A stretch of DNA of 64,000 bases from Trachythela sp. YZ-2020 (lineage: Eukaryota; Cnidaria; Anthozoa; Malacalcyonacea; Clavulariidae): NCBI GenBank assembly GCA_016169945.1, contig JADLSH010000236.1, forward strand, positions 2,652,001 through 2,716,000, in the 5' to 3' direction. Shown piece after piece: positions 19,745 through 60,172 of this stretch (its first letter is position 1; each line of letters starts with the position of its first letter). The translations under genes were made by a program, and so were the position numbers. The notes under the pieces are model-generated. The model did no database searches. It was not told where the DNA came from and worked only from the letters and a program-made list of their open reading frames with translations.

Positions 19745-20180
19745 ATAGCCACATCAAGATTTTTCTCGGCATCTCGTTCGATTGGATTAAAATAATAGAA
19801 GGTGTTAGTTGATGGAATATTCGAACGGAAAATTATATACATTTTTTAGACCTAGCCAGGAGTAGTTGCGAAAAATGCAACTTAGGCCCTCTGGCAGGAA
19901 TTGAATCTGCGGCCCTGGGATTAACGGTGCAGTGCTCTAACCAACTGAGCTACAGAGTCCAGTTGCTGAGCATTAACCGCAAGTTCGGTATATAAGATGG
20001 GTAAATATCAAGATTTTTCTCGGCATTTCGTTCGATTGGATTAAAATAATAGAAGGTGTTAGTAGATGGAATACTCGAACGGTCCGGGTAGATGGAATAC
20101 TGACCTAGCCAGGAGCAGTTGCGAAAAATGCAACTTAGGCCAACAAATTGAACCTGCGGCCTAATCGCGCAGGGCCTTTT
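19745..20180. repeat. tRNA-derived SINE-like repeat, two diverged copies
   Basis: On the minus strand, 19884-19960 reads like a tRNA head: GTAGCTCAGTTGGTTAGAGC (A box) and later GATTCAATTCC (B box-like). The anticodon stem does not pair properly, so it is not a functional tRNA. A degraded copy follows at about 20100-20178. The flanking block tttttctcggcatctcgttc occurs at 19757 and again at 20012, so the unit looks duplicated. Best read as remnants of a tRNA-derived SINE. Confidence 0.6.
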
Positions 20181-30540: not shown

Positions 30541-30735
30541 CTTTTTCCTTTCCTTTCCTTTCCTTTCCATTCCTTTCTTTTCCTTTCTTTTCTTTTCCTT
30601 TCCTTTCCTTTCCTTTCCTTTCCTTTCCTTTCCTTTCCTTTCCTTTCCTTTCTTTTCCTTTCTTTTCCTTTTCTTTTCTTTTCTTTTCTTTCCTTTCCTT
30701 TCTTTTCCTTTCTTTTCCTTTCCTTTCATTTAATT
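30541..30735. repeat. (TTTCC)n pentanucleotide microsatellite
   Basis: About 195 bp of TTTCC with TTTTC variants, strictly pyrimidine-rich on the plus strand. It lies exactly at the junction where the duplicated TNF copy lost its internal part, between sequence matching 38330-38560 and sequence matching 42600 onward. The long frames across it are artefacts. Confidence 0.97.
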
Positions 30736-30739
30736 TAAT

Positions 30740-33222: not shown

Positions 33223-33272
33223 CTTTAAAACTTGATGTGTGAAGTTGCGTATGGTGGGTGCAAGGACAATAG

Positions 33273-33468
33273 TAGACTTGCTACAAGTCGACTCGCATAA
33301 TGACTGGGTTAATACGGACTGAGTTTACTGGGTTAATACGGACTAAGGCGAGTAAGGGCGAGCTTGAAATCAACTGCCCAATTTCCGACTCGCGCTTTCG
33401 TTGAATTGGGCTTAACTGCGCGTCTGGGCTTTACTGCGCGTCAATGGAGTCGACTTGTAGCAAGTCTA
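33273..33468. mobile_element. 196-bp MITE with 22-bp TIRs and 9-bp target duplication
   Basis: The ends are perfect inverted copies of TAGACTTGCTACAAGTCGAC TC. The flanks 33264-33272 and 33469-33477 are both GGACAATAG, a 9-bp target duplication. Gene B's paralogous site near 44013-44030 has one copy only (gcaatagatgaacttgag) and no insertion, so the empty site is visible. It is non-coding. The target-duplication length suggests a Mutator-like or similar transposase, by inference. Confidence 0.9.
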
Positions 33469-43977: not shown

Positions 43978-45091
43978 CTTTAAAACTTGATGTGTGTAGT
44001 CGCGTATGGTGGGTGCAAAAGCAATAGATGAACTTGAGACACAACGAAATTGAGTGTGTTGTTCCTGGAATTAAATCTCGCATCGACACTGAGCACTGAG
44101 ATATAATTTCTAATCACAATTTTCTATTGGCTCCTCTAGGCTAATATCAAGTTACATGTGCGATGAACGTGCAGCGAATACATTTTTCAATTCGAACATT
44201 GTGGTTAAACTCAATCAATCCATGGACCTATCATCTATTATTCAGTACATTTATCAACACACATCCCATTTCTGAATTTTCACCTTTTTGCATGAAGTGG
44301 TAACGCTAAAAAGAGGGGGAGGGGGTGGGGGGAGTTTGTTGGTGTTGGTGGTTTAATGGTTAGTGTATGGTGATTCCTTCCACCCCTGCGACCAGGATTC
44401 AATTCCTGTAATATGCAGTTGTCAGATTATAATTTTAAACACCGCAGGTTTCCTCCTGTTCTAACACTGTAAAAATAAAGGTAGCCCATTACCAGACCTC
44501 CAGAGAGAACAGTTTAGAACATTCTAATAGTGGGGGAGGGAATTCAATCCCAGTTACTGATTTGGCAAATCCTGTTTCCAACAGCAAAATTGCTGGCGCA
44601 AATTCCATTCCCAATGGTCCAAATCCCTGTGGAAAACTAGGCAAAACCCAGCTTCCAATTTTCCTTTCAGGAGCCTCAAATATAGTTTGTGGTTGTTTAG
44701 TTTTGATGGTGTGCAAAATACTCGCAAATAATTGGTGAAAGTTTAATGAGAAATGGAGAAAGGTGATTTATCGCTTTCTACGACTCTTGGCTATCGCATT
44801 AGATCCCATTGCGTTATGTGTGAAGTGTTATATAACATTGCTGAGAGTGACTTCCCGGGACTATGTTTCGTATATATTTTGTTTATACTTGCCACAAGAT
44901 AATGTTTCATAACTTTCTCTACATCTGACTCTTACAATATTTCTATTGTTTCCTCAATTGTATAAGGACTCAAACTAACAACGTTTACTAATTCCAAAAC
45001 TCGTCAAAGTAATTCTTTTCAGTTCAGAAAAATGAACCATTCTGTTTGGGTAGGAAAACAGCAATGTACTACCCTGTACTTACTACGCTAT
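43978..45091. other. Intergenic between TNF gene B and the Polinton
   Basis: 5' flank of gene B, similar to 33223-33640 upstream of the pseudogene, followed by unique AT-rich sequence. A G-rich tract (44315-44335) is present. No gene is seen. Confidence 0.4.
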
Positions 45092-45097
45092 AATACC
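45092..45097. repeat. Left 6-bp target-site duplication AATACC
   Basis: AATACC directly abuts the outer end of the left terminal repeat. The identical hexamer abuts the right end at 60167-60172. Confidence 0.95.
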
Positions 45098-45469
45098 AGT
45101 AGTAGTGTACCGGGCTTAATGGACCCCCTTTCATGCACATAATTAGCACACGAACTAATTTATTCATGAACCAATGGTACGAACTAATTTATTCATAAAC
45201 CAAATTAAGTATTAGCTAATTTATTCGTCATTGATTGAGTTAATTTATTCCTGTCGCAAAACAAGACGAGCTATATTTTTCGAGATAATTTATGCTATAT
45301 TTTCTGAGATAATTTTTTCGTAAAACAACGCGAGCTATTTTCAGATTATTCCTGGTCGCAAAACAACGCGAGCTATTTTCAGAGTGTCATTTTGTTTCAA
45401 AATGTCAGAGCAAGCAGAGCAGATAATGTTAGATGTTTTAAGGGAAAATAATATAGAAATAAGTACGGA
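45098..45469 (+). repeat. Left terminal inverted repeat (372 bp)
   Basis: By eye this matches the reverse complement of 59795-60166 throughout. It holds short internal repeats (gaactaatttattcat twice; acaacgcgagctattttcag twice) and ends within what, on the right side, are the first codons of the Bcl-2-like gene. The left copy therefore carries a start codon at 45402 followed by only about 22 matching codons before sequence diverges at 45470. Confidence 0.95.
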
Positions 45470-45527
45470 GAGTTTATGTTCAAGGCATGACTTTTAAATC
45501 CTATCTTATTTCCTTAAGAGTCATCCT

Positions 45528-45611
45528 GCCCGGATGGCCGAGTTGGTAAAGGCGTTAGACTTAAGATCTAATGTGCGTTGCACTTCGTGGGTTCGAGCCC
45601 CACTCCTGGCA
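45528..45611 (+). tRNA. tRNA-Leu (anticodon TAA)
   Basis: The sequence folds as a class II tRNA. Acceptor GCCCGGA pairs with TCCTGGC except for one C-T mismatch at the fourth pair. The D arm contains GGCCGAGTTGGTAAAGGC. The anticodon arm is TTAGA-CTTAAGA-TCTAA with anticodon TAA. The long variable arm has the stem GTGC/GCAC, and the T arm is GTGGG-TTCGAGC-CCCAC. Discriminator base A follows. A and B box promoter sequences are intact and a T5 run lies at about 45619. It lies inside the Polinton between the left terminal repeat and the ATPase gene, which is unusual. It could be functional or a captured host copy; the mismatch leaves some doubt. Confidence 0.85.
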
Positions 45612-45697
45612 AAATACTTTTTCTCTCTTTGAACTCCATAATTCGATTTAAATTGCTTAAGCAGGGCAGATGTGTATTCATTTTGTGTTAGACTACC

Positions 45698-46332
45698 ATG
45701 GACCCCAGACTTAAGGCTTGTTTTTGCTTGCAGATTTCTGGACCGTCTGGTTCTGGCAAAACTGTTTGGGTTAAGAAGTTTCTTGAAAATATAGATAAAA
45801 TGATTGACCGAAAAGTTGATCAAATCATATATTGCTATGGAGAATACCAGCCTATTTTTGATGAAATCCGACAAAAAATACCAAAGATACAATTTTACGA
45901 AGGCTTCCCAGATGTCAAAAGTATGACTGATCCATCGTTTCATACCGTAATGATAATTGACGACCTTCAAAATGAGTTACTTGATAACTTAGAATTAGCA
46001 AACTTATTTACAAAAGGCAGTCATCATAGATCAATATCCGTGATATTTTTGCAGCAAGCTTTGTATAATAAAGGCAAATTTTCTCGCTTATGTTCGCTCA
46101 ATTGCCACTATATGGTGGTGTTCAAAAGTCCCAGGATCAAACAGTTATTTCTACACTTGCTCGACAAATGTATCCGGGCTGCGGTCAGTACTTAACTGAG
46201 GCTTATAAAGACGCCACGGAAAGGCCTTATTCGTACTTGTTTATAGATTTACATCCACAAACAGAAGATAAATTTAGACTTCGTTCAAAAATATTTCCCG
46301 ATGATTGGCAGATTGTTTATGTACGAAAATGA
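45698..46332 (+). CDS. Polinton packaging ATPase (FtsK/HerA, A32-like), frameshifted
   Basis: This enzyme pumps DNA into capsids in Polintons and related viruses. Walker A (GPSGSGKT, residues 15-22) and Walker B (VMIIDDLQN) are clear in the first frame. Near 46128-46136 the homologous sequence moves to another frame and continues to the stop at 46332 with the C-terminal part (STLARQMYPG, YLFIDLHP, FPDDWQIVYV). As written, the first frame would end at 46195. The start is uncertain: the residues before the Walker A look unlike the family, and tttttgcttgcag just before ISGPSG resembles a splice acceptor, so an upstream exon may exist. It is first of three plus-strand genes in tight order. Confidence 0.88.
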
Positions 46333-46372
46333 TAAAAAAAGCAGAGTTTTCACAAACGCGAGTCATTTCACC

Positions 46373-46699
46373 ATGTCCGTTCACATGAGAAGGAACCTTC
46401 ATTTGCTAAAGGCTTTACAAAAAGGAAAGCCACAGTTACGCAAGGCGATTTTAAAACACGTAGAACCAAGTTGTATAAAAGCAATTTGTGATTGTGTGTT
46501 GAATATTTTAACAAGCGTGGTTAAAATATCGTCACCTCAAAAGAGGAAGCTGTCAAAACATAAAAATCATTTAAGGTTGTTAGCCGACAAAAGAGCATCT
46601 CTGAAAAGGAAGCGAAAAACATTAACGCAAAAAGGGGAAGGATTCCTAAATTTAATACTTGAACCCGTTTTGAAAGAGCTCGTGTCGTTAATTGAGTGA
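46373..46699 (+). CDS. Small basic Polinton protein ending in a GEGFL motif
   Basis: About 108 residues from ATG 46373, rich in Lys and Arg, mostly helical in appearance. It has RRNLHLLKAL near the start, a SSPQKRKLSKHK segment, and a C-terminal QKGEGFLNLILEPVL hydrophobic end. Small proteins with this layout (helical, basic, QKGGFL-like C-terminus) are a recurrent Polinton/adintovirus component. They are often compared with adenovirus core or minor capsid proteins, but the function is not established. It follows the ATPase by 40 bp and is followed after 4 bp by the next plus-strand gene. The frame is open upstream to 46301, but that part overlaps the ATPase end. Confidence 0.7.
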   Translation: MSVHMRRNLHLLKALQKGKPQLRKAILKHVEPSCIKAICDCVLNILTSVVKISSPQKRKLSKHKNHLRLLADKRASLKRKRKTLTQKGEGFLNLILEPVLKELVSLIE

Positions 46700-46703
46700 G
46701 ATT

Positions 46704-47438
46704 ATGAAGCATTCAAATAAAATGATTATGATTCCGCAAAACACCTTTGATAATTATATGAGGCAACAAAATCAAATAATCCCACCGACTGTTAAAAAAA
46801 TGGCCCAGTTAGACGATGAGATGAAATTGATTTTGGAAAGTACTGATACTACACAAGAGGAAAAAGCGAAGCTTTACAGTCAAACGTTAGAGAACTACCT
46901 TCATTTCAAGGCAAAACAGACAGATGAAAGGACCGTACCCATTTCGGTTACGCTCTCAGAAGTACCAAAGAGAGCGGCAGTCATTAATTCAACCGACCCA
47001 ATTAACAGTGCTATTAACAAAGACAAAATGACAGTGGGCGAAATTGTTGAAGTTTTACCAAAAACATTACAACCTAAAGCAAAAATGATTTTGCGACGAA
47101 TTCAGGATAATCCTGATGTTTTAAGTTGGACCAATCGGGGCGAAGTGAAATATAACGGAGAAACTTTGTCAAATACAAATATTACTAATCTTTTAGGCGA
47201 TTCGCTTAAATACCGAAAAAACAATAAGCCTAAAGGATACGAAATTTTTACAAAAGCATTGAGTGAAATTAATCTTCCAGAAGATTTAATACGCAACCCT
47301 GAACGACTTCAGCTTTTCAAAACTCATGTGTACGAAAAAACACCGGACAAGGAGAAAGACTCACCCCAAAAAGACAAAGAAGAATATTCGCCGGTGAAGA
47401 AAAGGGCTAGAAAACTACAGTGGAAAACTAACTTTTAA
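46704..47438 (+). CDS. Conserved Polinton protein of unknown function
   Basis: 244 residues from ATG 46704. The N-terminal third is a charged helical region (PPTVKKMAQLDDEM and on). The middle, about residues 105-190, contains a recurrent module: VLPKTLQPKAKMILRRI, then a segment with SWTNRGEVKYNGE and TNITNLLGD. The tail is basic with Pro (SPVKKRARKLQWK), possibly a nuclear localisation signal. Proteins with this central module are common beside capsid genes in Polinton-type elements, but I know no assigned role. The gene is the last of the left plus-strand block and converges on the RING gene. Confidence 0.65.
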   Translation: MKHSNKMIMIPQNTFDNYMRQQNQIIPPTVKKMAQLDDEMKLILESTDTTQEEKAKLYSQTLENYLHFKAKQTDERTVPISVTLSEVPKRAAVINSTDPINSAINKDKMTVGEIVEVLPKTLQPKAKMILRRIQDNPDVLSWTNRGEVKYNGETLSNTNITNLLGDSLKYRKNNKPKGYEIFTKALSEINLPEDLIRNPERLQLFKTHVYEKTPDKEKDSPQKDKEEYSPVKKRARKLQWKTNF

Positions 47439-47571
47439 GATATTTTATATATATATAGCTATGTTTAACAATTAAGTGAATAGTTTTAAATAAATTTTGA
47501 ATGAAATAATCGAGCTGAGTGGAGTAATTTTTATTATTTTCTCACACACAAAAAGTGACATTTGTTTCCCC

Positions 47572-48195
47572 TTATGGATGATAACGGCGCCAATGGCAAG
47601 TTTCTGCCGTTGTGTGCATTATATCACATGTGGAACATAGTTGGGTACTGTCCCACTGCTGACGACAGTGCGCGCATGTTTCCGGGTTTCCATTCCTCCG
47701 TTGTTCTCGCCTCCATCTTCGAACGCATCGTTTATGCACGAAATGGTCACAGCACGCGGTTGAAATTGCACCTTTTTCCTTGCGCTGGATTTCTTCCAGA
47801 CAAATGTAACAACCCTCTTTCAATCTGAAACCTCTACAGTTGTCCAGATCATTCTCAATCGCGTGAAATAAGCCATAGGGAGGTGATTCCAGTTCTCGTC
47901 TTATGTTACGTTGTCTGCATACTTCATGCAAAGGAACTGCGCCACGGCGAAACTTTTTCGGTCGAAGTACAGGCATCTTGCAATATTGTACTTCAGAAAT
48001 ATACTCGTAGAAATGCTTGTGTTGATTTCGGTTTGAAAAGTTTGTATAATAATAATTGACTATAGCATTTTCGGTTCTTGCTATTAAGTATTGAATATCA
48101 AGAATCATTAATTCACTAATGACTGAACATATTGTTACTTTACGACATTGCCCAGTACCACAAAGGAACCTTTTCGGTTGTTTAATAGGCTGCAT
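47572..48195 (-). CDS. RING-H2 finger protein (putative E3 ubiquitin ligase)
   Basis: 207 residues. A C3H2C3 RING is visible: C129 and C132 (CYICLEE), C149, H151, H154, C157 (CCDHFVHKRC), C174 and C177 (CAHC). A basic stretch RRWRREQRRNG lies inside the finger and a further Cys/His cluster (CSTCDIMH) follows. RING-H2 domains recruit ubiquitin-conjugating enzymes, so the protein may redirect host ubiquitination, as many viral RING proteins do; that part is inference. The N-terminal 60 residues have no recognised domain. Its first codons overlap the end of a small membrane-protein frame (48135-48335). A 49-bp piece around codons 15-30 is repeated in inverted orientation at 59404. Confidence 0.8.
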   Translation of the reverse strand: MQPIKQPKRFLCGTGQCRKVTICSVISELMILDIQYLIARTENAIVNYYYTNFSNRNQHKHFYEYISEVQYCKMPVLRPKKFRRGAVPLHEVCRQRNIRRELESPPYGLFHAIENDLDNCRGFRLKEGCYICLEEIQRKEKGAISTACCDHFVHKRCVRRWRREQRRNGNPETCAHCRQQWDSTQLCSTCDIMHTTAETCHWRRYHP

Positions 48196-48335
48196 CTTTC
48201 AGTGTTCATCTTTTCGGTAGCCTTATAGACAGCGAACACCACGCCGATTATAATGAATGATGTGACGCTCATTATAAGTTTGCCTAAACGTGTTTGGGCC
48301 AGCCGTATATAAGAAATCGTTGTGTGTCTGTTCAT
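48135..48335 (-). CDS. Small single-pass membrane protein (66 aa)
   Basis: A 66-residue frame with one strongly hydrophobic segment (residues about 20-37, LIMSVTSFIIIGVVFAVY), a short basic N-terminus and a polar tail. It overlaps the RING gene start by 61 bp in another frame and begins 17 bp from the opposite-strand polymerase exon. It could be a separate small membrane protein or a 5' exon spliced to the RING gene. No family is recognised. Confidence 0.45.
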   Translation of the reverse strand: MNRHTTISYIRLAQTRLGKLIMSVTSFIIIGVVFAVYKATEKMNTERCSLLNNRKGSFVVLGNVVK

Positions 48336-48352
48336 CGTAACCTAAGAAAACA

Positions 48353-49017
48353 ATGGAAAACGATTCTCCTGGATGGGCGAGTATTCTCGACACTCTAACG
48401 TCAGACGAGTTGGGAAACCTAGAGACGGAGGCAATTTTGGAAAGTATTATTCAAGGTAAATACAGACGACTCCATTTCAATTATCAACAGACGAAATTGT
48501 GAGGGTTTTAATAACGATATTTCACCTTCCAGATGATCCATTTGAAAACTTCACGCAAGCTGATTGGCAAAAAATTGATGCTGCGATTGAGGAAAATGTT
48601 GGTCGACAGTCGAATGCTGCGATTGAAGAAAATATTGGTATGAAGTTGTATTGCTTTATAGGATTCAATTATCAACAGACGAAATTGTGAGGGTTTTAAT
48701 AACGATATTTCACCTTCCAGATGATCCATTTGAAAACTTCATGCAAGCTGATTGGCAAAAAATTGATGCTGCGATTGAGGAAAATGTTGGTCGACAGTCG
48801 AATGCTGCGATTGAAGAAAATATTGGTATGAAGTTGTATTGCTTTATAGGATTGTATTTCATCATATTACTGGAAGGTCTCTAACGCATTATCTTTTGCT
48901 TGTAGAGTACCGCTGCAATGTGTGGGAATTTATACCAACACAGTTCCAGTTTGGGGAGGCACAAACGCCAGAAACACGGGTCGGCATCTGCAGAGAGCCT
49001 GACTAAGAGAGAAAATG
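48353..49017 (+). CDS. 5' exons of the Polinton DNA polymerase gene, with a duplicated exon
   Basis: Four putative exons with GT/AG borders: 48353-48455 (acidic start, MENDSPGW), 48533-48637, 48721-48825 and 48906-49017. Exons 2 and 3 are 105 nt, phase 1 at both ends, and differ at one base; they belong to a 188-bp tandem duplication (about 48475-48662 and 48663-48850). Exon 4, in the frame that joins the polymerase exon at 49111, is basic (GRHKRQKHG) but is not in phase with exon 3, whose frame would reach a stop at about 49002. So either another acceptor is used, translation starts at ATG 48918, or a frame change lies in exon 4. Confidence 0.55.
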
Positions 49018-49110
49018 GTAAGTCCGTTTCTTTTTTCCGCCAGGCATGTGATTTCAGTTGAAATTGTTATTCGAAAGATGATTTCAACCTATACTTTCCT
49101 ATTTACCTAG

Positions 49111-52100
49111 AATCAAGCGAAACTGAGACGACAAACAAACGTCCCCGAACGGACCAGGCCGGGGCTGGTCCTTCAGGCGAACCAGCTGTAGAAGAAGAAC
49201 CGAATGAACCAGCTGCAGAAGAAGAACCGAATGAACCAGCTGCAGAAGAAGAACCGAATGAACCAGCTGCAGAAGAAGAGGAAGAACCGAATGAGCAGCT
49301 TGAAGCAATACTTCAGCAGCACCGTGACATAATCAACGCCGGACATCGCTTACATCACAGGCAAGACGTTTTTAATATTAGAGTAGACGATTCGTTTACG
49401 ATAGAAACGTTAGTCAATCGTTTAAGGGGTATATATAGACAACAACGCAGGGCATTTAAAATTAATTTAAGTTTCAGCTTTATTTTAAGAAACGTAGAGA
49501 CAGGTGAATTAAGGTTTTTCTACGGTTCCCACAACACCAATTTTCTAGATACACCTATGATGATACATGACGATGCCACATTTAGACATTTTGTAGATGT
49601 GTTGCGAACCTTAGATGTGCTAGAATGGGTCAGATTGCAGCGCCCAAATAGTAAATGGGTATTTTTACAATTGGTCCAATGCTTGGTTACAGTAACTAGA
49701 CTTAATGTTCCTATTGGAGCACCTATTCAGTTGCCGGAATATATAATCCATAATCACGCGATTATTTCATTAGCTAAGGATCGCAAAACGGGGCGGGCTT
49801 TCGACGATAATCTCTGCTTGTTTCGTTGCCTCGCCTTGCACGAAGGGGCGGGTGAGAGGTATTTTGATCGGGCGACAAATGCTTTATATGATCGTTATCT
49901 CCAGGAAACCAGTCTGGATCGGGAGGATTTCGGTGGGGTTGACCTAAGTGAACTCGATATAGTCGAGAATTTGTTCGAGGTTGCCATTCACATATACTCG
50001 ATTGACGAAGAAGGTTTGGCATTTTCAGTAAGGAGGTCTGTTGCGGAATTTCGACCTATGTATGTAAATCTACACAACGACCATTTTAGTTTCATCACAG
50101 ATGTAAGTAAATTTTGCCTATCGTTCGCCTGTTCTAAATGCGATAAGATATTTTCAAAACCATATCGCCTAACTCGACATGAACAAACTTGTGATGTGAA
50201 TGTTAAACATAAATTTCCAGGCCATACGTATAAAGTAGAGAAAACCATTTTTGAGGAGCTTGAAAATTTAACTTTGGACTTTGAACCGCCGGACAAATTT
50301 TTTCCATATTTCCTGACGTGGGACATGGAATCTTTCCAGTACGACACGCAAAACGAAACCGAAGCTAGGCTCCAGTGGACAGCCGAACACGTCCCCGCCT
50401 CAATCTCCGTAGCTAGTAACGTTCCAGGTTATGAGTCTGCAAAATGTTTTGTTACGGATGGTAACGCAGAACAGCTTGTCAGCGATTTTGTAGAATATAT
50501 ACATGAAGTAAGCGACATGGGTTACCGACTTTTGTCCGAAAAATTCGAAAATGTTTTCACCCAGTTGGACGTTATGGTTAGTAATTTGCCTGAAATCGAT
50601 GAAAACGGGAAAGAACAAATTTTAAAATTGAAGAAAAAGTTTGACCTTTTTTTAAAAGAAATGCCAATAGTCGGTTTCAACTCCTCTCGCTACGACATTA
50701 ACGTTATAAAGAGATTTTTATTCCACAAATTGGATACAACTGAAGAGGATGGGGTAGGTTTTGTCGTAAAGCGAAATAATGCGTATATGTGTATTAAAAC
50801 TGAAAGACTTAAATTTCTCGATATACTGAATTATTTAGCCCCTGGGTGTAATTACGACCAGTTTCTTAAAGCATATGAGTGTAGTGCACAGAAAGGGTAT
50901 TTCCCTTATGAATGGTTTGACGACATAGCAAAGCTCGATTACGAAAGCCTCCCAGACCACGATGATTTTTTTAGCGCTCTCCGAAACACAAACATTAGCG
51001 AGAGTGAGTACAGTCACTGCTTGTCTATTTGGCGAAATGAAGGAATGGTTACTTTTAAGGACTATTTGGTATGGTACAACAACCGTGATGTAGAACCATT
51101 TGTCGAGGCAGTGGAAAAAATGTTTGAGTTTTACCAACCGAGAAATTTAGATATTTTTAAAGATGGGATATCCGTTCCCGGTTTAGTAATGAAAAATCTC
51201 TTTTCCGACCTAGATCATAACACGTTCTTTAGCTTGTTTCAGGAGAGAGACAAAGATTTGTACTATACTTTTAAGGACAATATCGTTGGGGGACCTTCAA
51301 TTATTTTCCATAGATATCACGAGAAAGACAAAACTAACATTCGGGGTGGGAAACCATGTAAGCGAATTTGGGGAGCTGATGCAAACGCATTGTACCTGTG
51401 GGCTTTATCCCAGCAAATGCCGTCCGGATATTATGTAAGGCGAAAGAAAGAAAACGATTTCAAAAAAGAGGAATATTTTAATAAGATAAGCACAGAATGG
51501 CTTGATTATGTTGCCCATCGTGACAACGTATCTATATTGCATGCACATAACCACGGGGAACAACGCATTGGCAGTTTTCTTGTAGACGGGTTTGATTCTG
51601 CAAATAACACAATTTACGAATTTAATGGGTGCTATTTCCACGGACATAGCTGCGACCTAAACAACAAAGATTTTAACGAAAAGTGTAACTTACCTATGTG
51701 CGTACTATATGATCGCACGATGAATAGACAACGATACCTCGAAGATCGGGGGTACAAAGTGGTTTCTATTTGGGAATGTGAATACAAACATATGCGTAAA
51801 AATGATGACGATTTGAAAGATTTTCGTAGTTCGTACAAGCAAGAATTAGAATGTAAGTCTGGTATGTCTGTTGCACAAATAATTGCTTCAATCAAATCAA
51901 ATAAGCTGTTTGGCGTTGTCCGTTGCGACATTCGAGTACCAGATGACAAAAAAGAAAAATTTTCCGAAATGTGCCCCATTTTCAAAAACGCGGACATTCC
52001 TTTTGATTGCATTGGGGAACATATGCAACAATTTGTAAATGAAAACAATTTAAACAAAAAGCCAAGGCGCGGGTTGATAGGTAGTATGTTTGGAGATAAT

Positions 52101-53039
52101 ATTTTATTAACTACCCCACTTTTGAAATGGTATATCGATCACGGACTTGAAGTTACTGACGTGCACGAAGTGGTAGAGTTTACGCCAAAAACTTGTTTTC
52201 AAAACTTTGCAGATAATGTTAGTAATGCTCGGCGGGAAGGGGATTCTGACCCCTCGAAAAAGATCATTGCGGATACGTGCAAATTGCACGGGAATTCAGC
52301 TTACGGTAGAACGCTCACAAATAAGGAAAAACATCTGAATATAAGTTACTGCGACGAATCAGCAGTTGGGTTAGCTGTCAACGATCCACATTTTAGAAAG
52401 CTGGATATTCTTGACGAAAATTATTATGAAATTTCGAAAACAAAGAAATCGATAAGCCTAAATTTACCAATTCAAATCGGGTTTTTTGTCTATCAATACG
52501 CCAAACTTCGTATGCTTGAATTTTATTATGACTTTATGGATAAATTTCTTGACCGTTCGGATTTCGAATACTGCGAGATGGACACAGACTCAGCATACGT
52601 TTCACTATCTGGTGAGAGCATCGAGGCTCTCGTTAAGCCTGAGCTTAAAGCGGAATACGAACGTGAAAAATTTAGTTGGTTTCCGAGGGATTATAACGCC
52701 GAAGTTAAGGCTTATGATACACGCACGCCTGGTTTGTTTAAAACAGAATTTTTGGGCGATGGGATAATAAGCCTAAACAGTAAAATGTATTTCTGCTTCA
52801 ATGAATCACAGGAAAAATTTTCTTGTAAGGGAGTGAATAAATACACCAATGCGATAGTCAAAGACACATATTTGAACGTCATTCGAAACAAAACCACGGG
52901 CCAAGCAACAAACCGGGGATTTCGTGTTAGAGGGAACAGGATTTTCACATACACACAGGTCAAAAACGCGTTTACTTATTTTTATGGCAAAAGAAAGGTT
53001 TTAGCAGATGGTGTAAGTACGACCTATTTGGATCTGTGA
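49111..53039 (+). CDS. PolB: Protein-primed family B DNA polymerase (Polinton PolB) with OTU-like N-terminus
   Basis: The main exon follows acceptor tttacctag and stays open for about 1,308 codons. It starts with an acidic 9-residue repeat (EPAAEEEPN, four imperfect copies). Counting from Met 49557: an OTU-like cysteine protease signature (DDNLCLFRCLAL, C87; NDHFSF, H176), a C2HC/C2H2 finger (C192, C195, H208, C212), 3'-5' exonuclease motifs (D256-M-E258; FNSSRYD near 375-381; YNNRD 508-512), PolA (DANALY 609-614), PolB (KLHGNSAYG 910-918), PolC (DTDS 1010-1013). An inserted nuclease-like block (VDGFD ... YEFNGCYFHGH, 677-698) resembles Vsr/PD-(D/E)XK folds. All catalytic residues are present. 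It replicates the element by protein priming. Confidence 0.95.
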
Positions 53040-53548
53040 TTAAAAAATAACCATTTTATTAAGATGTCTCGCTCCGATATCGAATAATGTGAACAGGGCT
53101 TCCGGACTCGGCTATATACTTTTACGGAAAAATTCGACGTTCCAGTCATACCCCACTATACACTCCGATTTGAGTGAGTCATAAATGATATGGTTTCCAC
53201 GAGATATATCGATCAAAGATTTCATATCTGTAAAAATGGTTTCCATAAAATAGGAATGCATGCGAATCTCCAAAGGTTATATCTATGTAGGCACAATTTT
53301 GATCGTTAAAAGTCTAATGCATGTGATGTTATTCGTAGCATGGTGACAGATGCGCGCGACAAGCAGAGATTTACGTAGGAATGACTAGAAATTGACTTAT
53401 ATTTATCTCGATGATAAAATGCCCCCAGGCAACTATGAATTTAACTATCCAGATATTAATCCTGTGTGATTCATTAAATGTAAATATAGTGTGAAAACAA
53501 GCAATCAATGTATTAAAATTTTCTTTATTACTAAATAAATATTAACTG
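53040..53548. other. Gap between polymerase and protease genes
   Basis: Convergent spacer of about 500 bp, AT-rich. It holds only a 44-codon minus-strand frame (53112-53246; METIFTDMKS start, VGYDWNVEFF near the end), which could be a remnant or a small gene. No other feature is visible. Confidence 0.4.
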
Positions 53549-54064
53549 TTACATGGTTTTTGAGTACTTTGCTATAGCCTTCTGACCAAATTTGTTGCGT
53601 GATTTTGCATGAAATATCTCTCTTACAAAAGCCGCAACAAGTACATCGTTTTGTACGAGGTTCCGAGTAAACTTGTGTTCTATTGTACTCGTAGCTATAT
53701 GTCTACAACGATAGTATATAAAATAAATACAGAAATGTCCACAGACGCTTGAAAAAGGCGATTGAAGAGTCCGACGATTGCGTGTCCATTTCGAACAGTT
53801 TTTTGCCAGGAATGATACAAATGACAATGTGTACGCTTCGGGATCTTGGCCAAGAGAGTCAAAAAATTCACCATGTGTAGGACTAGCAAACCAAAACGCG
53901 ACCCAATGTGAGCCAGGCATGTTACTTCGATCGACATTTGCCACATAGGCTTTGGGGTAACTATCCACTGTGTCAGGCAGTTTATCCGATGCGTAGACGC
54001 CACCAAACACATGTTTAGTGCAATTATCGGAGCGTAGAATTTTCTCTATCGTGGTGGAGTTCAT
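53549..54064 (-). CDS. PRO: Adenain-like cysteine protease (maturation protease)
   Basis: 171 residues, C5/Ulp1-like fold family. The triad and oxyanion residues are in the expected order and spacing: H53 (GSHWVAFWF), D69 (EFFDSLG), Q101 (LQSPF) and C108 (SSVCGHFC). Such proteases cut precursor capsid and core proteins during particle assembly. Its ATG overlaps the stop of the upstream capsid gene by ATGA (54061-54064), the tight packing typical of a viral late block. The frame is intact. Confidence 0.93.
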   Translation of the reverse strand: MNSTTIEKILRSDNCTKHVFGGVYASDKLPDTVDSYPKAYVANVDRSNMPGSHWVAFWFASPTHGEFFDSLGQDPEAYTLSFVSFLAKNCSKWTRNRRTLQSPFSSVCGHFCIYFIYYRCRHIATSTIEHKFTRNLVQNDVLVAAFVREIFHAKSRNKFGQKAIAKYSKTM

Positions 54065-55379
54065 GTGCTGAAGTCAAATATAATGTTTCGGCTCTTGTCT
54101 ATTTCGATAAGGCTCTCAAACTCGGCGTAAACTAAACAGGTGACTGTATTTGGCAGAGCTCGCGCAAACTGAATACTTAAGCGAACGTTTCCAGTTTTTA
54201 CAGGATTAAAATGTTCTGAGCTGGTAAGATCCGGAGTGAGATCTATAGCATACAGTGTATATCCTTTGCCGTAATCTTCGCGACTGATAAGATTTCCAGA
54301 GTCGGCAAACATTTTATCCATGCCAGAAAAGAGAGTTTCATAACCACGTATATACAAGCCATCGCCTCCATCACCAAATTGAACTTGAATAGGTTTGTGC
54401 GAATCCCCGTTGACAGACAACCCAACTTGCGTGACGTTGTAGTGATGAAAGTTGAAGGCATTTTTGCCATAACTGCCGTGAAAAGCCTCGCTATGAACTA
54501 AAGCTATTACAACACGTTTCGGTAATACACCTAGGAACACATTTTCCCGATCTAAAGACAGCAGACCTTGCGGAATTGCTATAGATTTCACCTCCACTCT
54601 TGAAATGGGATATTTTGCCGTTGTTTTGTCCAAAAACTTTTCGTGATCTAAGCGAAGGGTTGGACTTACACTCACGCGACGCATGCGCAGCACGGCTTCT
54701 TCAATCAGAACTTTATATGCCGGATTTTCACCACCTGCCATTAAGCAAAAACTGTTCGCAGATCTAACCAATTTAACTTTAATGTCGACTCCTGGAATAA
54801 TCAGGCGTTCTTGAAAGCATATGTCCGCATGTAAAGGACCGGACATATCACAACTTCTGCTTGTCGCTTTTTTAAACCCATGTTTGCGTTAGCATCGAGC
54901 GCTCCTGGGTTATGTACATCCATTTTACCAGCAGTATCCATAAAGAATAAACTAGTTTGCATACGCGATCTCATGGCTGCCGGACCGAAATTAAGTAATG
55001 TCTCGATCATGGCGCGGTAAGAATAAGTTGTTGCGCTTGGCGTGACCAATTTATCGTTGAGTGAAACATTCACTTGACTAAACAGCGACTGCAAGAATAG
55101 ATTCTGCGGACCCACTTGATCATCACCTCCGATGTTCTCTCCATCAGCAGCTTTTACTTTAACTTTTACGTACAGTTGCATGCGACTAGGGTCTAAATAA
55201 TCTTCTCCATTGCCCGGAACAAAAAATTCGATAGGCGCTGAATCTTCACCAAGTGTTGACACCGGGTAATAATCCACAAATTTACTTTTCTCGACCGCCA
55301 CTTGCGTGGGCGGGACGCTAAATAGACTTAATTCATCTTTACTACAGGCTTCGGAATCGTAATGGATAGGCTTCAGCAT
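54061..55379 (-). CDS. MCP: Major capsid protein (double jelly-roll), one frameshift
   Basis: The N-terminal part is read from 55379 (FFVPGNGEDYLDPSRM, the Polinton capsid strand; SATTYSYRAMIETLLNFGP; SSLFFMD-like block). The C-terminal part, 54846 to the stop at 54061, lies in another frame (SGPLHADICFQERLIIPG onward, GSYGKNAFNFHHYN, QFARALPNTV). The frame changes near 54846-54852, so the written sequence would stop early at 54801. Total length is about 438 codons. In Polintons this protein forms hexagonal capsomers like the adenovirus hexon. It is followed directly by the protease and preceded by the pVI/pX-like gene, all on the minus strand. Confidence 0.9.
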
Positions 55380-55382
55380 CGT

Positions 55383-55829
55383 TTAGTTACCAAATATATC
55401 GCTGTATGCCAACTTTTTCTTGGTCTTTGACTTAGGTGTGTTCGCCTTGCGAGGTTTTTTCGACTGACTGACAGTTTTAACTTTGCCTTTCCTTTTAATC
55501 CCCCTGCCATTACCACTTTGCATGTTTGATTGAGTGTGACTAATTGCTTTTTGTTTCATATTTCCAGCTGCCTCGCGTAAACGACTCGCGGTTGCCGTTT
55601 TTATATTTTTCCCACTAAGTAAATCTTCTCCAATGGCGACACCTGTCTTTAGGGCCTCTCGACCTACTTCTTTACCTCCCCGAATTAAATACGGAACTGC
55701 ACTGCGAAATAATCTTCTAAAAATTCCTCCTAAACCATTCCCTGTTTGTGTTCGAAATCTACCAAATCCTCTTTGTCTTCTTGCTCCTGAAAAGACTGGC
55801 AGAGCGCCTCCGGTTTGCCACTGTTGCAT
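55383..55829 (-). CDS. Small basic pVI/pX-like capsid-associated protein
   Basis: 148 residues from ATG 55829, 1 bp after the penton-like stop. Features: WQTGGALPVFSGARR near the start, a Gly-rich patch (GNGLGGIFRRLF), an amphipathic segment (SAVPYLIRGGKEVGREAL), then a very basic tail (RKGKVKTVSQSKKPRKA, ending SDIFGN). Adenovirus pVI and pX and their Polinton counterparts are basic, amphipathic and cut by the adenain-type protease. That match is by layout and position, not by a strong motif. It sits between the minor and major capsid genes. Confidence 0.75.
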   Translation of the reverse strand: MQQWQTGGALPVFSGARRQRGFGRFRTQTGNGLGGIFRRLFRSAVPYLIRGGKEVGREALKTGVAIGEDLLSGKNIKTATASRLREAAGNMKQKAISHTQSNMQSGNGRGIKRKGKVKTVSQSKKPRKANTPKSKTKKKLAYSDIFGN

Positions 55830-55830
55830 A

Positions 55831-56583
55831 TTAAAAGTATATTGAATGGTTTGGTCGAAGGTGAAGTGTACAGATTGACCGACCGTACTCAAATGGCACT
55901 CGTCTCCCTGACTCGTCCGTTATATGCACTTCCAATGTTTCAAATCGCTTCGTACCGATTGGAATATATAACGGATTCTGGTACGTTTTTGTAATTGTAT
56001 CACCGTAGTTTCCCTTAATTTGAACTGCACGCAGCAACGGCACTTTTTTGTCACCAACAATTTGATCGCTCACAATGTCGCAATACACAAACATGGATGA
56101 GAATCCTGCATTAATATCTGCTGCATAGGGGGATGTTGTTTTCTTTGTGACATAACAGTCTTGATCAAAACCTAACACTGCAGCAATATCACCTGTGAAC
56201 CAGACGCTCGCTTGCTTTTTCACATCTATCGTTACTTTACGTGTGCGCCGATTATAGGTAAACTTAATTTTGTCTTGAACATCTTTCGACAGGCTTCCGT
56301 TTAAATTTTTGACAAAATCAAGTATGCTCTCGTAATGCCCGCTTTCGATTACCGGTGCATGTCGTTCACTCCCCACCATATAGATAAATGTTTGTTGTGT
56401 ACCATGTCGTATTGTACTCCATGTATTCGAGTATTGAATTTCAACAAGAGCTACCTCCCAATCGCCTGTTAGGGAAATCGTTTCTGGAAGTTTCACTTTG
56501 AAATTCGCCACTGTGTTTGAAGGAAATATGTTCATACAGCTATTGCTAGGTAAAGTTAAGAAAAAGGGTTTCGACCTTTCCAT
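55831..56583 (-). CDS. Penton-like minor capsid protein (single jelly-roll)
   Basis: 250 residues from ATG 56583. The N-terminal block is characteristic of Polinton minor capsid proteins: LTLPSNSCMNIFPSNTVANF, then LPETISLTGDWEVALVEI. Later there is a segment with VLGFDQDCYV and a C-terminal strand set near YIPIGTKRFETLEVHI. The homologous proteins form the five-fold vertices of the particle. The frame is intact. It lies head to tail with the pVI/pX-like and major capsid genes. Confidence 0.9.
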   Translation of the reverse strand: MERSKPFFLTLPSNSCMNIFPSNTVANFKVKLPETISLTGDWEVALVEIQYSNTWSTIRHGTQQTFIYMVGSERHAPVIESGHYESILDFVKNLNGSLSKDVQDKIKFTYNRRTRKVTIDVKKQASVWFTGDIAAVLGFDQDCYVTKKTTSPYAADINAGFSSMFVYCDIVSDQIVGDKKVPLLRAVQIKGNYGDTITKTYQNPLYIPIGTKRFETLEVHITDESGRRVPFEYGRSICTLHLRPNHSIYF

Positions 56584-56608
56584 CACGGCTGTTGACGTGT
56601 CACTAAAC

Positions 56609-57693
56609 TTATTTTATCAGTGTAATGTCTTTTTCATCTACCCAACTATTGAATTTTGCTGGGTAATTTTTCCAGCTTACGAGATATTGTTTGTGTCCGT
56701 TTCTTGTTCGTGAGCGAAGAATGCTGTCCACTGTGTACAGGTCGTCTTTTTTAATCACTTTCTGGAGTTCATGCTGGTAAAATATACCATCGAGTATTTC
56801 GTTTTCATAATCCTTGATTTTGTACACTGGGGGATCTCGCGCAATTTGTTCAGCTATGGTGAAGTTTTCCCCTGTCCATCCCTGATTGTAAGCCTTCTCA
56901 AATTGTTTTCTCGTCTTACTAATTTTGACTAAATCACCTATGTTAAATTTGAACTTGACTTTAGGTTGTTTCTTTCCATAGAGTATTTGTCTGACTTTGA
57001 ATTCATTTTCCCTTGTAACATTAGCTGGCATTTCCTTGATCGAGCGATGAACAGTATGGTTGTACGCGTGTACTAACTGTTGTAGCGTATCGATATAACG
57101 GACAGTATTATTCGCCGTGAAATAACGATATATTTTCTGCTTCAATGTTCGTATAAACCTTTCGGCTATGCTGGCTTTGGTCTCACTGTTCGTGGTGAAA
57201 AAGTGAATGCCGTATTGCCGCATGAGATTTCGAAATTGCAAATTCAAAAACTCTGTGCCTTGATCTGTATGAAGATAGTTAGGCACGCGACCTTCTTTCA
57301 AAACTTCACGAAAAGCGCGAGTAACAACTGGAGCAGTTTTATTTTTAGGGGTCTGACCCAAGCATATTTACTAAAACAGTCGATACAAACAAGTAGGAAC
57401 CTATAGTTGTCGTTTTGTGCGCTTAAAGATTGAAAGTCCGCTAAATCCGCTTCAAATTGATCATCGATGCCGGCAACAAAAACTCTAGTGCGAGGGTAAT
57501 TTTTACGAACAGGTTTGTGTAAAGTATACGTTTCTTGCGAGCGCAACCATTCACGCACGTCATTTCGACTTATATTCAGATTGTTCTTTGTCGCTCTTGC
57601 TGCGCGGTAAAGTTTCTCTAAACCACCAAAACTAGCTTCGTGTTTGGGGTTGTAGTAAATTTTGCTGAGAAGCGTTTCCTTCCTCTTTGCCAT
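56609..57693 (-). CDS. INT: Retroviral-type integrase with C-terminal chromodomain, one frameshift
   Basis: It starts at ATG 57693. The N-terminal frame holds a helical DNA-binding part (LLSKIYYNPKHEASFGGLEK) and the first catalytic Asp (FEADLADFQ, D83). Near 57342-57346, at a run of five A on the coding strand, the homologous sequence shifts frame and continues to the stop at 56609, with the second Asp (LHTDQGTEF), the Glu (ETKASIAERF), an SH3-like region (NIGDLVKISKTR) and a chromodomain (YTVDSILRSR, YLVSWKNYP). The D,D-E set is complete across the two frames. It inserts the element into host DNA; the 6-bp target duplication fits. Confidence 0.93.
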
Positions 57694-57814
57694 CGAGCTC
57701 TGATTTGTATATCAAAACACGTCCACTACAGCAAGTACACAGACAGCGAATGCGTTTGAGAAACTCACGCAGTTCTATGCTAGGTGTTTGCGGCTGTCCA
57801 AAACAATTTCCCAT
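57632..57814 (-). CDS. Putative N-myristoylated microprotein (60 aa)
   Basis: The frame begins MGNCFGQPQ, a good N-myristoylation start (Gly2) with a palmitoylatable Cys4, followed by a basic helix and a Cys cluster (RIRCLCTCCSG), then a polar tail. It overlaps the integrase start by 62 bp in another frame. Its start is 82 bp from the divergent LRR gene. Membrane anchoring at the cytoplasmic face is predicted; the function is unknown and no family is recognised. Confidence 0.5.
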   Translation of the reverse strand: MGNCFGQPQTPSIELREFLKRIRCLCTCCSGRVLIYKSELDGKEEGNASQQNLLQPQTRS

Positions 57815-57896
57815 GTTGACATGACAAGCTTCACAGGAGAAATGAGCACTGTGTCGTATTACAACGCGTTTTTAAGACATTCAGTCACTGGTCGAA

Positions 57897-58529
57897 ATGT
57901 TGTGCTTTGTGGTACTCGTTGTTTTATTGAATTTATCGGCCGTTTTGACGTGCCCAAGGTCTTGCACGTGCTCGACGAGTATAAAAATGATTAATTGTGC
58001 GAACGGTGGTTTCACGCACCTTCCACGTGGACTAAAAGGTGATGGACGGTATCTGACTTTGATAATGATACACAACCAAATTAATACACTAACGGAGAAG
58101 GACATGGACGCATTACACAGGTTTAAAGAAGTGGATATGAGGGACAATCCCTTAAACTGTACATTGCTACATGCTTTAGATTATAAAATGATTATATTGA
58201 GTGACTGTATTTCCAAGTTTCTCAGTACGAAACCTACGGTTACAAAGTTTAACCACAGTACCGCAAAACACGATTCGGGTCGCTTGAACCGAACTGAACC
58301 TCCACGAACAAAACATGGAAAAAGGAAGGAGAAAATGCTATGGCTGATCGCGATTTTACCGCTGGTGATTGTCCTAGCAGTGATAGCAGCGTGTTTGTTC
58401 CTGATACGGCGCAGGTTTCTACTACAAAGGCAACGCGTCATCCGTTGCAATCCTATAGAACTTTACCCTCTTAGGCATGAAGAAGACGACGAAGTAATTA
58501 TATTTGAACTGAAAGAAAAACGATTATGA
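57897..58529 (+). CDS. LRR type I membrane protein carried by the Polinton
   Basis: 210 residues. Signal peptide 1-18 (MLCFVVLVVLLNLSAVLT), LRRNT cap with four cysteines (C19, C23, C25, C34; CPRSCTCSTS), about two leucine-rich repeats, then a truncated LRRCT-like cap (DNPLNCT, C88 and C104). A stalk carries N-glycosylation sites (N87, N119, N131). The membrane segment is at 147-170 (MLWLIAILPLVIVLAVIAAC) and the cytoplasmic tail is basic then acidic (HEEDDEVIIFELKEK). The architecture resembles short Slit/GPIb-beta-like host receptors, so host capture is likely. The role could be receptor binding, a decoy or an envelope-like function; all are inference. It is the only plus-strand gene in the right half. 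Confidence 0.8.
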   Translation: MLCFVVLVVLLNLSAVLTCPRSCTCSTSIKMINCANGGFTHLPRGLKGDGRYLTLIMIHNQINTLTEKDMDALHRFKEVDMRDNPLNCTLLHALDYKMIILSDCISKFLSTKPTVTKFNHSTAKHDSGRLNRTEPPRTKHGKRKEKMLWLIAILPLVIVLAVIAACLFLIRRRFLLQRQRVIRCNPIELYPLRHEEDDEVIIFELKEKRL

Positions 58530-58610
58530 TTTTTATTTATAGTATATAGTTACAACATTTCACTCTGCACTAAGTTATACGTTATATATTAAATGTTCTG
58601 TCCGGGATGG

Positions 58611-59264
58611 TTAATAATCCGTAAGTGCATTCATAAATGAGGTTATTGGCAATTCCCCCATGTATTCGGCGTACGCATCGTGTGGATTCTCCTGTGCACT
58701 GGTAAAGGTAAGGCCTGTCTCGGACACCATGTACGTGTATAGTGCTGGATTGCTCTGTAGTAGACCAACTCTCTGGATGTGGGGAAAGTGGTCTTGGTTG
58801 AACGGGTTCTCTGGCGCGATTTTCCATTCGAAAAAGCCGCACGATTTTTCCCTTTCGTTTGGGCAACAGAAGAACAGACGGCCTTGATTTTCTCCATCCT
58901 TTTTTACTTTCCTTACGCAACAGTTTAATCCATGCTCGCACTTTGGTTTAGGTAGCTCGAATCTGTCAGCCCATTGCCAGAAGTTACACGGAGTTTGGCG
59001 ATCGCAGCAAACGAAGAACGGCCTTCCAAAGTTGCGTTTGTTCACGTCTTTCACGACTTTCATCTTCGCCAACCTTTGGTGAGTATCACACTGTGGATGG
59101 ATCGCGCCGTTTGCCCTCCACATCATCACAGCCGTCTCAAACAGCGAACGGTCTTGTTCAGGGCAAAAGAATTCACAACATTTAGGGTTGTTCTTGTTAC
59201 AAACCCAAAACTTTCCATTCTTCGTAGAGATTGCAGACGCGGGCATTCCGTGTAAGCACTCCAT
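58611..59264 (-). CDS. Triple GRF zinc-finger protein
   Basis: 217 residues from ATG 59264. Three GRF-type zinc ribbons follow each other: residues about 3-34 (CLHG ... KFWVCNK ... CCEFF), 59-99 (CDTH ... FGRPFFVCCDR ... CNFWQWAD) and 109-147 (CEHGLNC ... GRLFFCCPN ... CGFFEW). GRF fingers bind single-stranded DNA or RNA in topoisomerase III, APE2 and NEIL3. Here the protein probably binds nucleic acid during replication or repair of the element. The C-terminal 70 residues have no recognised domain. It lies between the LRR and Bcl-2-like genes. Confidence 0.85.
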   Translation of the reverse strand: MECLHGMPASAISTKNGKFWVCNKNNPKCCEFFCPEQDRSLFETAVMMWRANGAIHPQCDTHQRLAKMKVVKDVNKRNFGRPFFVCCDRQTPCNFWQWADRFELPKPKCEHGLNCCVRKVKKDGENQGRLFFCCPNEREKSCGFFEWKIAPENPFNQDHFPHIQRVGLLQSNPALYTYMVSETGLTFTSAQENPHDAYAEYMGELPITSFMNALTDY

Positions 59265-59403
59265 TGCTGTGTTTATGTCAATTTCTGTTTGATGTGCGAT
59301 ATTTATGTGCAAGCCCTCCTTTGTTTAGAGGCGTAGAAGTTCAGGTTTGCCCTGTCATAGTGTCATTAAAACCCGTTACTAGCAATCTCAGCATAAACTC
59401 GTT

Positions 59404-59452
59404 TGGGCAATGTCGTAAAATAACAATATGTTCAGTCATTAGTGAATTAATG
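59404..59452. repeat. Inverted 49-bp copy of a RING-gene segment
   Basis: The sequence is nearly the reverse complement of 48106-48154 (one mismatch) and similarity continues weakly beyond. It sits in the short gap between the GRF and Bcl-2-like genes. It includes the end of the small membrane frame and codons about 15-30 of the RING gene. Confidence 0.85.
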
Positions 59453-59484
59453 ACCTGTTAATGATTATCGATATTCAAATTGTA

Positions 59485-59862
59485 TCATCCCATTAGCCAT
59501 GATAGTGCTCGTTGAAACCAGGAACGTTTTATTTCATAACTTGCTAAATCAACGTGTCTAAAATCCTCAACAGTTATTCGAACTGCTTGATGAAATGTTT
59601 CAGGGTCACAATAATCGCTAACTTTATAAACTAAAGTCAAATAGGCCATAATTCTACAAAAATGTAAAGGTCTCGACTCTTCATATACTTCACATAAATT
59701 TTCAAACACATTCTCTCTACCAATTTTATACGTCATATCCTTATATGATTTTTCATGCTTTTCCAAAAGCACTTTTATATAAAAATGCAAAGTTTCCGTA
59801 CTTATTTCTATATTATTCTCCCTTAAAACATCTAACATTATCTGCTCTGCTTGCTCTGACAT
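59485..59862 (-). CDS. Bcl-2-like protein (putative apoptosis inhibitor), start inside the TIR
   Basis: 125 residues, all helical in appearance, no C-terminal membrane anchor. A BH1-like block (LHFCRIMAYLTLVYKV, compare the NWGRIVAF consensus) and a BH2-like block (SWFQRALSW, two Trp seven residues apart as in WIQxNGGW) occur in the right order and spacing. Bcl-2 proteins control mitochondrial apoptosis by binding BH3 proteins, and Bcl-2 homologues are reported in adintoviruses and other DNA viruses. BH3 and a helix-9 anchor are not clear, so the identity needs structural support. ATG 59862 and the first 22 codons lie in the right terminal repeat. Confidence 0.6.
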   Translation of the reverse strand: MSEQAEQIMLDVLRENNIEISTETLHFYIKVLLEKHEKSYKDMTYKIGRENVFENLCEVYEESRPLHFCRIMAYLTLVYKVSDYCDPETFHQAVRITVEDFRHVDLASYEIKRSWFQRALSWLMG

Positions 59863-60166
59863 TTTGAAACAAAATGACACTCTGAAAATAGCTCGCGTTG
59901 TTTTGCGACCAGGAATAATCTGAAAATAGCTCGCGTTGTTTTACGAAAAAATTATCTCAGAAAATATAGCATAAATTATCTCGAAAAATATAGCTCGTCT
60001 TGTTTTGCGACAGGAATAAATTAACTCAATCAATGACGAATAAATTAGCTAATACTTAATTTGGTTTATGAATAAATTAGTTCGTACCATTGGTTCATGA
60101 ATAAATTAGTTCGTGTGCTAATTATGTGCATGAAAGGGGGTCCATTAAGCCCGGTACACTACTACT
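59795..60166 (-). repeat. Right terminal inverted repeat (372 bp)
   Basis: Reverse complement of 45098-45469, ending in ...CCCGGTACACTACTACT. It contains the promoter-side region and first codons of the Bcl-2-like gene. It is followed directly by the AATACC target duplication. Confidence 0.95.
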
Positions 60167-60172
60167 AATACC
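60167..60172. repeat. Right 6-bp target-site duplication AATACC
   Basis: Identical to 45092-45097 and directly adjacent to the right terminal repeat. Confidence 0.95.

What the first reader, a model, noticed from the sequence alone, without database searches (positions are those of the whole stretch)
45092..60172. Complete Polinton/adintovirus-like provirus with intact ends and 6-bp target duplication
Both terminal repeats (372 bp), the AATACC duplication and all hallmark genes are in place, and accessory genes occupy much of the element. Near-identical terminal repeats suggest a recent insertion or gene conversion. The full layout, with RING, LRR, GRF, Bcl-2-like and tRNA cargo, is unlike a minimal Polinton.
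Basis: partly seen in the sequence, partly recalled or inferred. Interest (0 to 1): 0.85.

Follow-up and report, generated by a model that had tools for sequence, protein, structure and literature searches.

The report
Young, partly broken Polinton-type provirus
A virus-like mobile element of the Polinton (adintovirus) kind sits with clean ends in what looks like coral DNA and carries cargo genes, one of which may block cell suicide; it is a well-equipped member of a known family, and three of its core genes are split in this assembly.

Summary
The ends are real. Inverted repeats 45098-45475 and 59789-60166 (378 bp) differ at three inner positions, begin with the AGT repeats of Maverick ends and are flanked by AATACC. 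Between them lie, in two convergent modules, a packaging ATPase, PolB, an adenain-type protease, an integrase with chromodomain, and candidate capsid and penton genes named by position only. This is a Polinton/Maverick of the adintovirus (Eupolintoviridae) kind. "Complete" is too strong: the ATPase, capsid and integrase genes are each split between two frames. Repeat identity and high CpG suggest a recent insertion. Cargo fills 15.8% of the element: a RING protein, GRF fingers like those of NEIL3, an LRRNT membrane protein with an 88%-identical relative in the octocoral Paramuricea clavata, tRNA-Leu(UAA), and a 125-aa protein with a Bcl-2-like predicted fold whose start lies inside the right repeat. 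Accessory genes, anti-apoptotic genes and tRNAs are already reported in this group or its kin, so this is a new member of a known kind. Other copies and the empty site could not be examined (genome search did not complete).

The parts
45092..45097 (.). left copy of target-site duplication AATACC
45098..45475 (+). left terminal inverted repeat, 378 bp, begins with three AGT; its inner 74 bp (45402-45475) are a stub of the Bcl-2-like gene
45527..45612 (+). tRNA-Leu, anticodon UAA
   Evidence: ARAGORN; Rfam RF00005 58 bits
45698..46332 (+). packaging ATPase (A32-like), split: frame passes to the -1 frame within 46072-46195
   Evidence: Pox_A32 29.2 bits, cut-off 22.8; the generic RNA_helicase P-loop profile also passes its cut-off
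46301..46699 (+). small ORF in the place of PM
   Evidence: position only; no Pfam match above cut-off
46704..47438 (+). ORF in the place of PZ
   Evidence: position only; no Pfam match
47572..48195 (-). RING-finger protein (true start uncertain)
   Evidence: zf-RING_2 26.3 bits, cut-off 27.3
48105..48154 (-). left copy of a 50-bp inverted repeat (98%)
48476..48851 (+). 188-bp tandem duplication, 99% identical, each copy holding a candidate 105-bp exon
49062..53039 (+). PolB open frame (1325 codons); first ATG at 49557 lies inside the conserved region; 5' part probably spliced
53549..54064 (-). adenain-type cysteine protease
   Evidence: Peptidase_C5 27.1 bits, cut-off 21.3
54061..55379 (-). 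candidate major capsid gene, split: frame passes to the -1 frame within 54801-54888
   Evidence: position between PW-place and protease; no profile or fold support
55383..55829 (-). ORF in the place of PW
   Evidence: position only
55831..56583 (-). candidate penton (minor capsid) gene, unbroken
   Evidence: position only
56609..57693 (-). integrase with C-terminal chromodomain, split: frame passes to the -1 frame within 57298-57367
   Evidence: Chromo 40.1 bits, cut-off 25.1; rve 24.9 bits, under cut-off 32.6
57897..58529 (+). LRRNT membrane protein (210 aa)
   Evidence: LRRNT 20.8 bits, under cut-off 25.8; PDB LRRC4 E 2.9e-6; relatives
58611..59264 (-). GRF zinc-finger protein, two profile matches
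   Evidence: Zn_ribbon_GRF 82.1 bits; NEIL3 chain E 3.2e-19
59404..59453 (+). right copy of the 50-bp inverted repeat
59485..59862 (-). Bcl-2-fold protein (125 aa); its first 74 bp lie in the right terminal repeat
59789..60166 (-). right terminal inverted repeat, 378 bp
60167..60172 (.). right copy of target-site duplication AATACC

Best explanation
An integrated Polinton/Maverick of the adintovirus kind (family now named Eupolintoviridae) in an anthozoan, probably octocoral, genome. It most likely arrived as linear DNA copied by protein-primed PolB and was joined by its own integrase with a 6-bp target duplication (ends shown; enzyme action inferred from the family). Capsid-module genes make it a provirus and not a bare transposon (inferred; capsid identity is positional). 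The insertion is recent (supported). By decay since then, or by assembly error, the ATPase, capsid and integrase genes are split, so this copy as read cannot give those proteins from one frame. The cargo most likely manages the infected cell: the Bcl-2-fold protein holds back apoptosis, the RING protein acts in ubiquitin transfer, the GRF protein binds single-stranded or forked DNA, the LRRNT protein sits in the membrane as a decoy or receptor, and the tRNA reads UUA, the commonest leucine codon of the element. All cargo roles are inferred from domain or predicted fold.
Against: Capsid and penton have no support beyond position. The window's own PolB matches no polymerase profile in Pfam, and rve is under its cut-off. 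PolB lies last in its module, unlike the first-named place in the vertebrate description. Bcl-2 has no sequence support: no Pfam match for the window protein, 1 of 10 family members at E 0.14, none in PDB by profile. No relative in IMG/VR. The host is named by no call.
Confidence: 0.88

Rival explanations
1. The three gene splits are sequencing or assembly errors and the resident provirus is coding-intact.
For: All three shift the same way, beside runs of A; the repeats are almost identical and PolB is open for 1325 codons.
Against: Three same-way shifts have a chance of one in four; true small deletions favour the same places; 96% of vertebrate Maverick loci are reported eroded. No reads were available.
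Confidence: 0.35
2. The splits are programmed -1 frameshifts that let one gene give two products.
For: Shift direction is -1 in all three; a preprint suggests possible slippery sites in some adintovirus penton genes and a similar relation for hexon-adenain (PMC11071296, section 16 read).
Against: Three genes in one element, including ATPase and integrase, for which no such case was seen in what I read; no reporter or conservation test.
Confidence: 0.04
3. An old fossil whose repeats were kept alike by gene conversion.
For: Conversion between terminal repeats cannot be excluded; three core genes are split.
Against: High CpG, perfect target duplication, long open PolB and other open ORFs.
Confidence: 0.08
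4. The 125-aa protein is not a Bcl-2 protein but another small helical protein.
Against: All 50 listed second-look entries are Bcl-2 family structures or complexes; the most conserved stretch of the family resembles the BH1 motif as I recall it; viral Bcl-2 proteins often have very different sequences (PMC7022251, passages).
Confidence: 0.15

Closest known systems
Vertebrate Mavericks (PMC8097293; sections 6 and 7 read, passages elsewhere)
   Same: AGT end motif, 6-bp target duplication, repeat length and size in range, two convergent modules, integrase-minor capsid-PW-capsid-protease order, accessory regions
   Different: anthozoan setting; PolB last in its module; three core genes split; cargo of LRRNT, GRF, RING, Bcl-2-fold and tRNA, none of which the searched terms leucine, RING, tRNA and zinc finger found in that text
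Adintoviruses / Eupolintoviridae (PMC11071296, section 16 read and passages; PMC12451622, passages)
   Same: integrase with C-terminal chromodomain; PolB with conserved N-terminal part; [quoted passage not shown]
   Different: hexon recognisability by BLASTp not shown here; cargo protein is a Bcl-2 fold without sequence match
Stylophora coral polinton (PMC11071308, passages)
   Same: coral polinton with PolB carrying a vOTU region
   Different: there the terminal protein is a separate gene; here homology continues upstream of the first ATG in the same open frame
Polinton-like viruses with tRNA genes (PMC12220804, passages)
   Same: tRNA genes, including one leucine tRNA in a cryptophyte element
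   Different: protist hosts; different virus group
Deerpox virus DPV022
   Different: unrelated virus; BH3 binding of the present protein untested

Membership tests
Polinton/Maverick | terminal inverted repeats with AGT-type end motif and 6-bp target duplication | tested here: met
[quoted passage not shown]
   by homology: 1277 relatives, two scanned relatives match DNA_pol_B_2; the window protein alone does not match that profile
Polinton/Maverick | retrovirus-like (rve) integrase | tested here: met
   rve E 2.5e-5, 24.9 bits, under cut-off 32.6; chromodomain 40.1 bits, above 25.1; gene split
Polinton/Maverick | A32-like packaging ATPase and adenain-type protease | tested here: met
   ATPase split
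Polinton/Maverick | double jelly-roll major capsid and penton | tested here: inconclusive
   position fits; sequence searches empty, model failed at pLDDT 31
Adintovirus (definition in PMC11071296) | PolB with N-terminal OTU-like domain | tested here: inconclusive
   N-terminal region conserved with relatives, Cys at position 87 invariant in 15 sequences; no OTU profile match
Adintovirus (definition in PMC11071296) | integrase with C-terminal chromodomain | tested here: met
Adintovirus (definition in PMC11071296) | hexon recognisable by BLASTp among adintoviruses | not tested
'Intact' Maverick (PMC8097293) | eight conserved intronless ORFs open | tested here: not met
   3 of 8 split; PolB 5' part probably spliced
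Bcl-2 family (59485-59862) | Bcl-2 fold | tested here: met
Bcl-2 family (59485-59862) | match to the Bcl-2 sequence profile | tested here: not met
   none for the window protein; 1 of 10 members at E 0.14; PDB by profile none
Bcl-2 family (59485-59862) | BH1 motif and BH3-binding groove | tested here: inconclusive
   family consensus NFGRIMAYL resembles BH1 as recalled; the window protein deviates at two of these positions; groove not tested
zf-GRF proteins (58611-59264) | GRF zinc finger | tested here: met
   82.1 bits, cut-off 25.9, two stretches; NEIL3
Extracellular LRR proteins (57897-58529) | LRRNT cap above the Pfam cut-off | tested here: inconclusive
   20.8 bits against 25.8; PDB LRRC4 E 2.9e-6; 1 of 8 relatives carries PF01462

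The most novel reading that the evidence does not exclude
The LRRNT membrane protein is a dedicated surface-protein family of anthozoan polintons: all seven relatives aligned keep the NCANGGFTHLP core, and the six that reach the C-terminus keep an acidic tail with an E-x-x-(L/I)FE(L/M)K motif. Together with the Bcl-2-fold gene, whose upstream region and start lie in the terminal repeat and so stand at both ends, it would let an integrated copy keep its cell alive and alter surface signalling while its capsid genes are silent. That the relatives lie in polintons is a guess: no call gave their genomic context.
Probability: 0.15. Interest if true: 0.6.

Novelty: new member of a known kind. Interest (0 to 1): 0.38.

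Why it matters
It gives a well-delimited adintovirus-type provirus from what appears to be an octocoral, with cargo that bears on how such viruses meet the defences of an early-branching animal. Apoptosis is reported as a response to a viral RNA mimic in the sea anemone Nematostella (PMC11251625, abstract and passages), so a Bcl-2-fold gene in a cnidarian provirus is a testable sign of an old contest. The element also lies between TNF-like genes, about 1 kb upstream of a presumed first exon.

Tried and rejected
Relatives in IMG/VR: eight of eight scans, none with a confirmed relative. Other polinton traces in the rest of the window: five tblastn rows, all at E 0.56 or worse. Capsid identity by PDB sequence, PHROGs and NCBIfam: nothing; by single-sequence model of one piece: failed, pLDDT 31. 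PolB by PDB sequence: nothing. Bcl-2 by sequence: nothing. tRNA as codon supplement: only a weak excess of UUA (p 0.057), and the flank control is mostly retroelement and TNF pieces. RNA fold of the tRNA alone is no more stable than shuffles (z -0.93) and the minimum-energy structure is not a full cloverleaf; ARAGORN and Rfam support it. tRNA as a recently inserted repeat: no repeats around it; the other Rfam tRNA match, 19889-19957, is weak (32.4 bits) and looks different by eye.

Literature (listings only unless said): adintovirus (28 of 29 listed), polinton with coral (20 of 34), Maverick/Polinton/cnidarian, polinton with Bcl-2, tRNA gene (12 of 17), Maverick with octocoral, polinton with leucine-rich repeat, Bcl-2 homolog with cnidarian and virus (12 of 18), zf-GRF with virus, polinton with Nematostella. 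No title or abstract start shown describes this element or an LRRNT cargo. Starrett et al. 2021, the adintovirus description, was not held, so novelty of single cargo genes is not established. The BH1 motif, the Polinton look of the capsid, PM, PZ and PW ORFs, and box A/B of the tRNA are from recall.
Full report
What was checked. The finding claims a complete Polinton/adintovirus-like provirus at 45092-60172 with 372-bp terminal repeats, an AATACC duplication, all hallmark genes and unusual cargo.

Ends. The inverted repeats run 45098-45475 and 59789-60166, 378 bp each, and differ at three positions, all in the innermost 30 bp. They begin with three AGT repeats; two AGT repeats are the commonest end motif of vertebrate Mavericks. 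AATACC flanks both ends directly; six matching bases at fixed places are expected about once in 2,760 trials. Elsewhere in the window the repeat matches only short stretches, apart from its own internal repeats.

Core genes. On the plus strand: packaging ATPase (Pox_A32 29.2 bits, cut-off 22.8), two ORFs in the places of PM and PZ, then PolB. On the minus strand: integrase (chromodomain 40.1 bits, above its cut-off; rve 24.9 bits, below its cut-off 32.6), candidate penton, an ORF in the place of PW, candidate capsid, and adenain-type protease (27.1 bits, cut-off 21.3). The two modules meet at about 53.3 kb. The minus-strand module has the gene order reported for vertebrate Mavericks; in the plus-strand module PolB stands last, whereas the paper names it first. 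PolB has 1277 database relatives at E 1e-20 or better; the 120 listed share 41-65% identity. Capsid and penton rest on position only: Pfam, PDB sequence search, PHROGs, NCBIfam and IMG/VR gave nothing, and a single-sequence model of one capsid piece failed (pLDDT 31).

Breaks. The ATPase, capsid and integrase genes each pass from one frame to another within overlapping ORFs (46072-46195; 54801-54888; 57298-57367). A codon-bias score trained on the other ORFs changes frame at each place. The change is sharp for the capsid and integrase; for the ATPase the three frames score alike over about 60 bp at the break, and the integrase score is weak for about 150 bp further on. All three shift the same way, beside runs of A. 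That fits assembly error, recent decay or, less likely, frameshifting; three shifts of one direction have a chance of one in four. By the published definition of an intact Maverick this copy fails. PolB is open for 1325 codons, but its first ATG, 49557, lies inside the conserved region: in 112 of 120 relatives the match begins before that ATG, in 31 of 120 before 49350. Upstream are splice-like borders, stretches with coding bias and a 188-bp tandem duplication holding a candidate 105-bp exon. A spliced 5' part is likely but not shown.

Age. No difference in the outer 348 bp gives an upper 95% bound of 0.86% divergence. CpG observed/expected is 1.15, above each of 31 overlapping 15-kb windows of the left flank (0.71-0.98). 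Dinucleotide distance to the flank is 0.064, against 0.032-0.056 for seven host windows. These point to a recent arrival. Gene conversion of the repeats remains possible.

Surroundings. Of nine flank ORFs scanned, three match the TNF family and two reverse transcriptase above cut-off. Two presumed N-terminal exons, 32890-33324 and 43672-44070, are 82% identical over 119 residues. The element lies 1028 bp from the nearer of these and 1317 bp from the TNF exon at 61483-61920. TNF-like genes and the Paramuricea match of a cargo gene suggest an octocoral host, but no call names it.

What it is. A member of the Polinton/Maverick group, most likely of the adintovirus kind (Adintoviridae was renamed Eupolintoviridae). 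[quoted passage not shown] Hence a new member of a known kind, of moderate interest. The LRRNT family is the part least covered by what I could read; Starrett et al. 2021 was not held.

Limits. The window's own genome could not be searched (eleven unanswered calls, last 109), so copy number, empty site and polymorphism are open.

Noticed in passing
2456-2839, 38868-39230, 61483-61920; 32890-33324, 43672-44070: TNF-family exons (Pfam TNF above cut-off in three ORFs) and two 82%-identical presumed N-terminal exons, all on the minus strand: a likely tandem cluster of TNF-like genes around the element.
   Followed up: partly
48105-48154 and 59404-59453: A 50-bp inverted repeat, 98% identical, inside the element, both copies pointing to the nearer end; absent elsewhere in the window. 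Role unknown; perhaps a regulatory module.
   Followed up: partly
48476-48851: 188-bp tandem duplication with one difference at protein level, each copy holding a candidate 105-bp exon with splice-like borders upstream of PolB.
   Followed up: partly
58611-59264: GRF gene has GC3 0.54, above 95 PolB windows of equal length (0.35-0.43); the Bcl-like gene has the lowest, 0.24.
   Followed up: partly
751-1915: Long 22-bp tandem array in the host flank, open in one frame for 255 codons.
   Followed up: no
8780-9090, 30544-30747, 41048-41266: Other tandem arrays in the host flank with units of 33, 5 and 24 bp.
   Followed up: no
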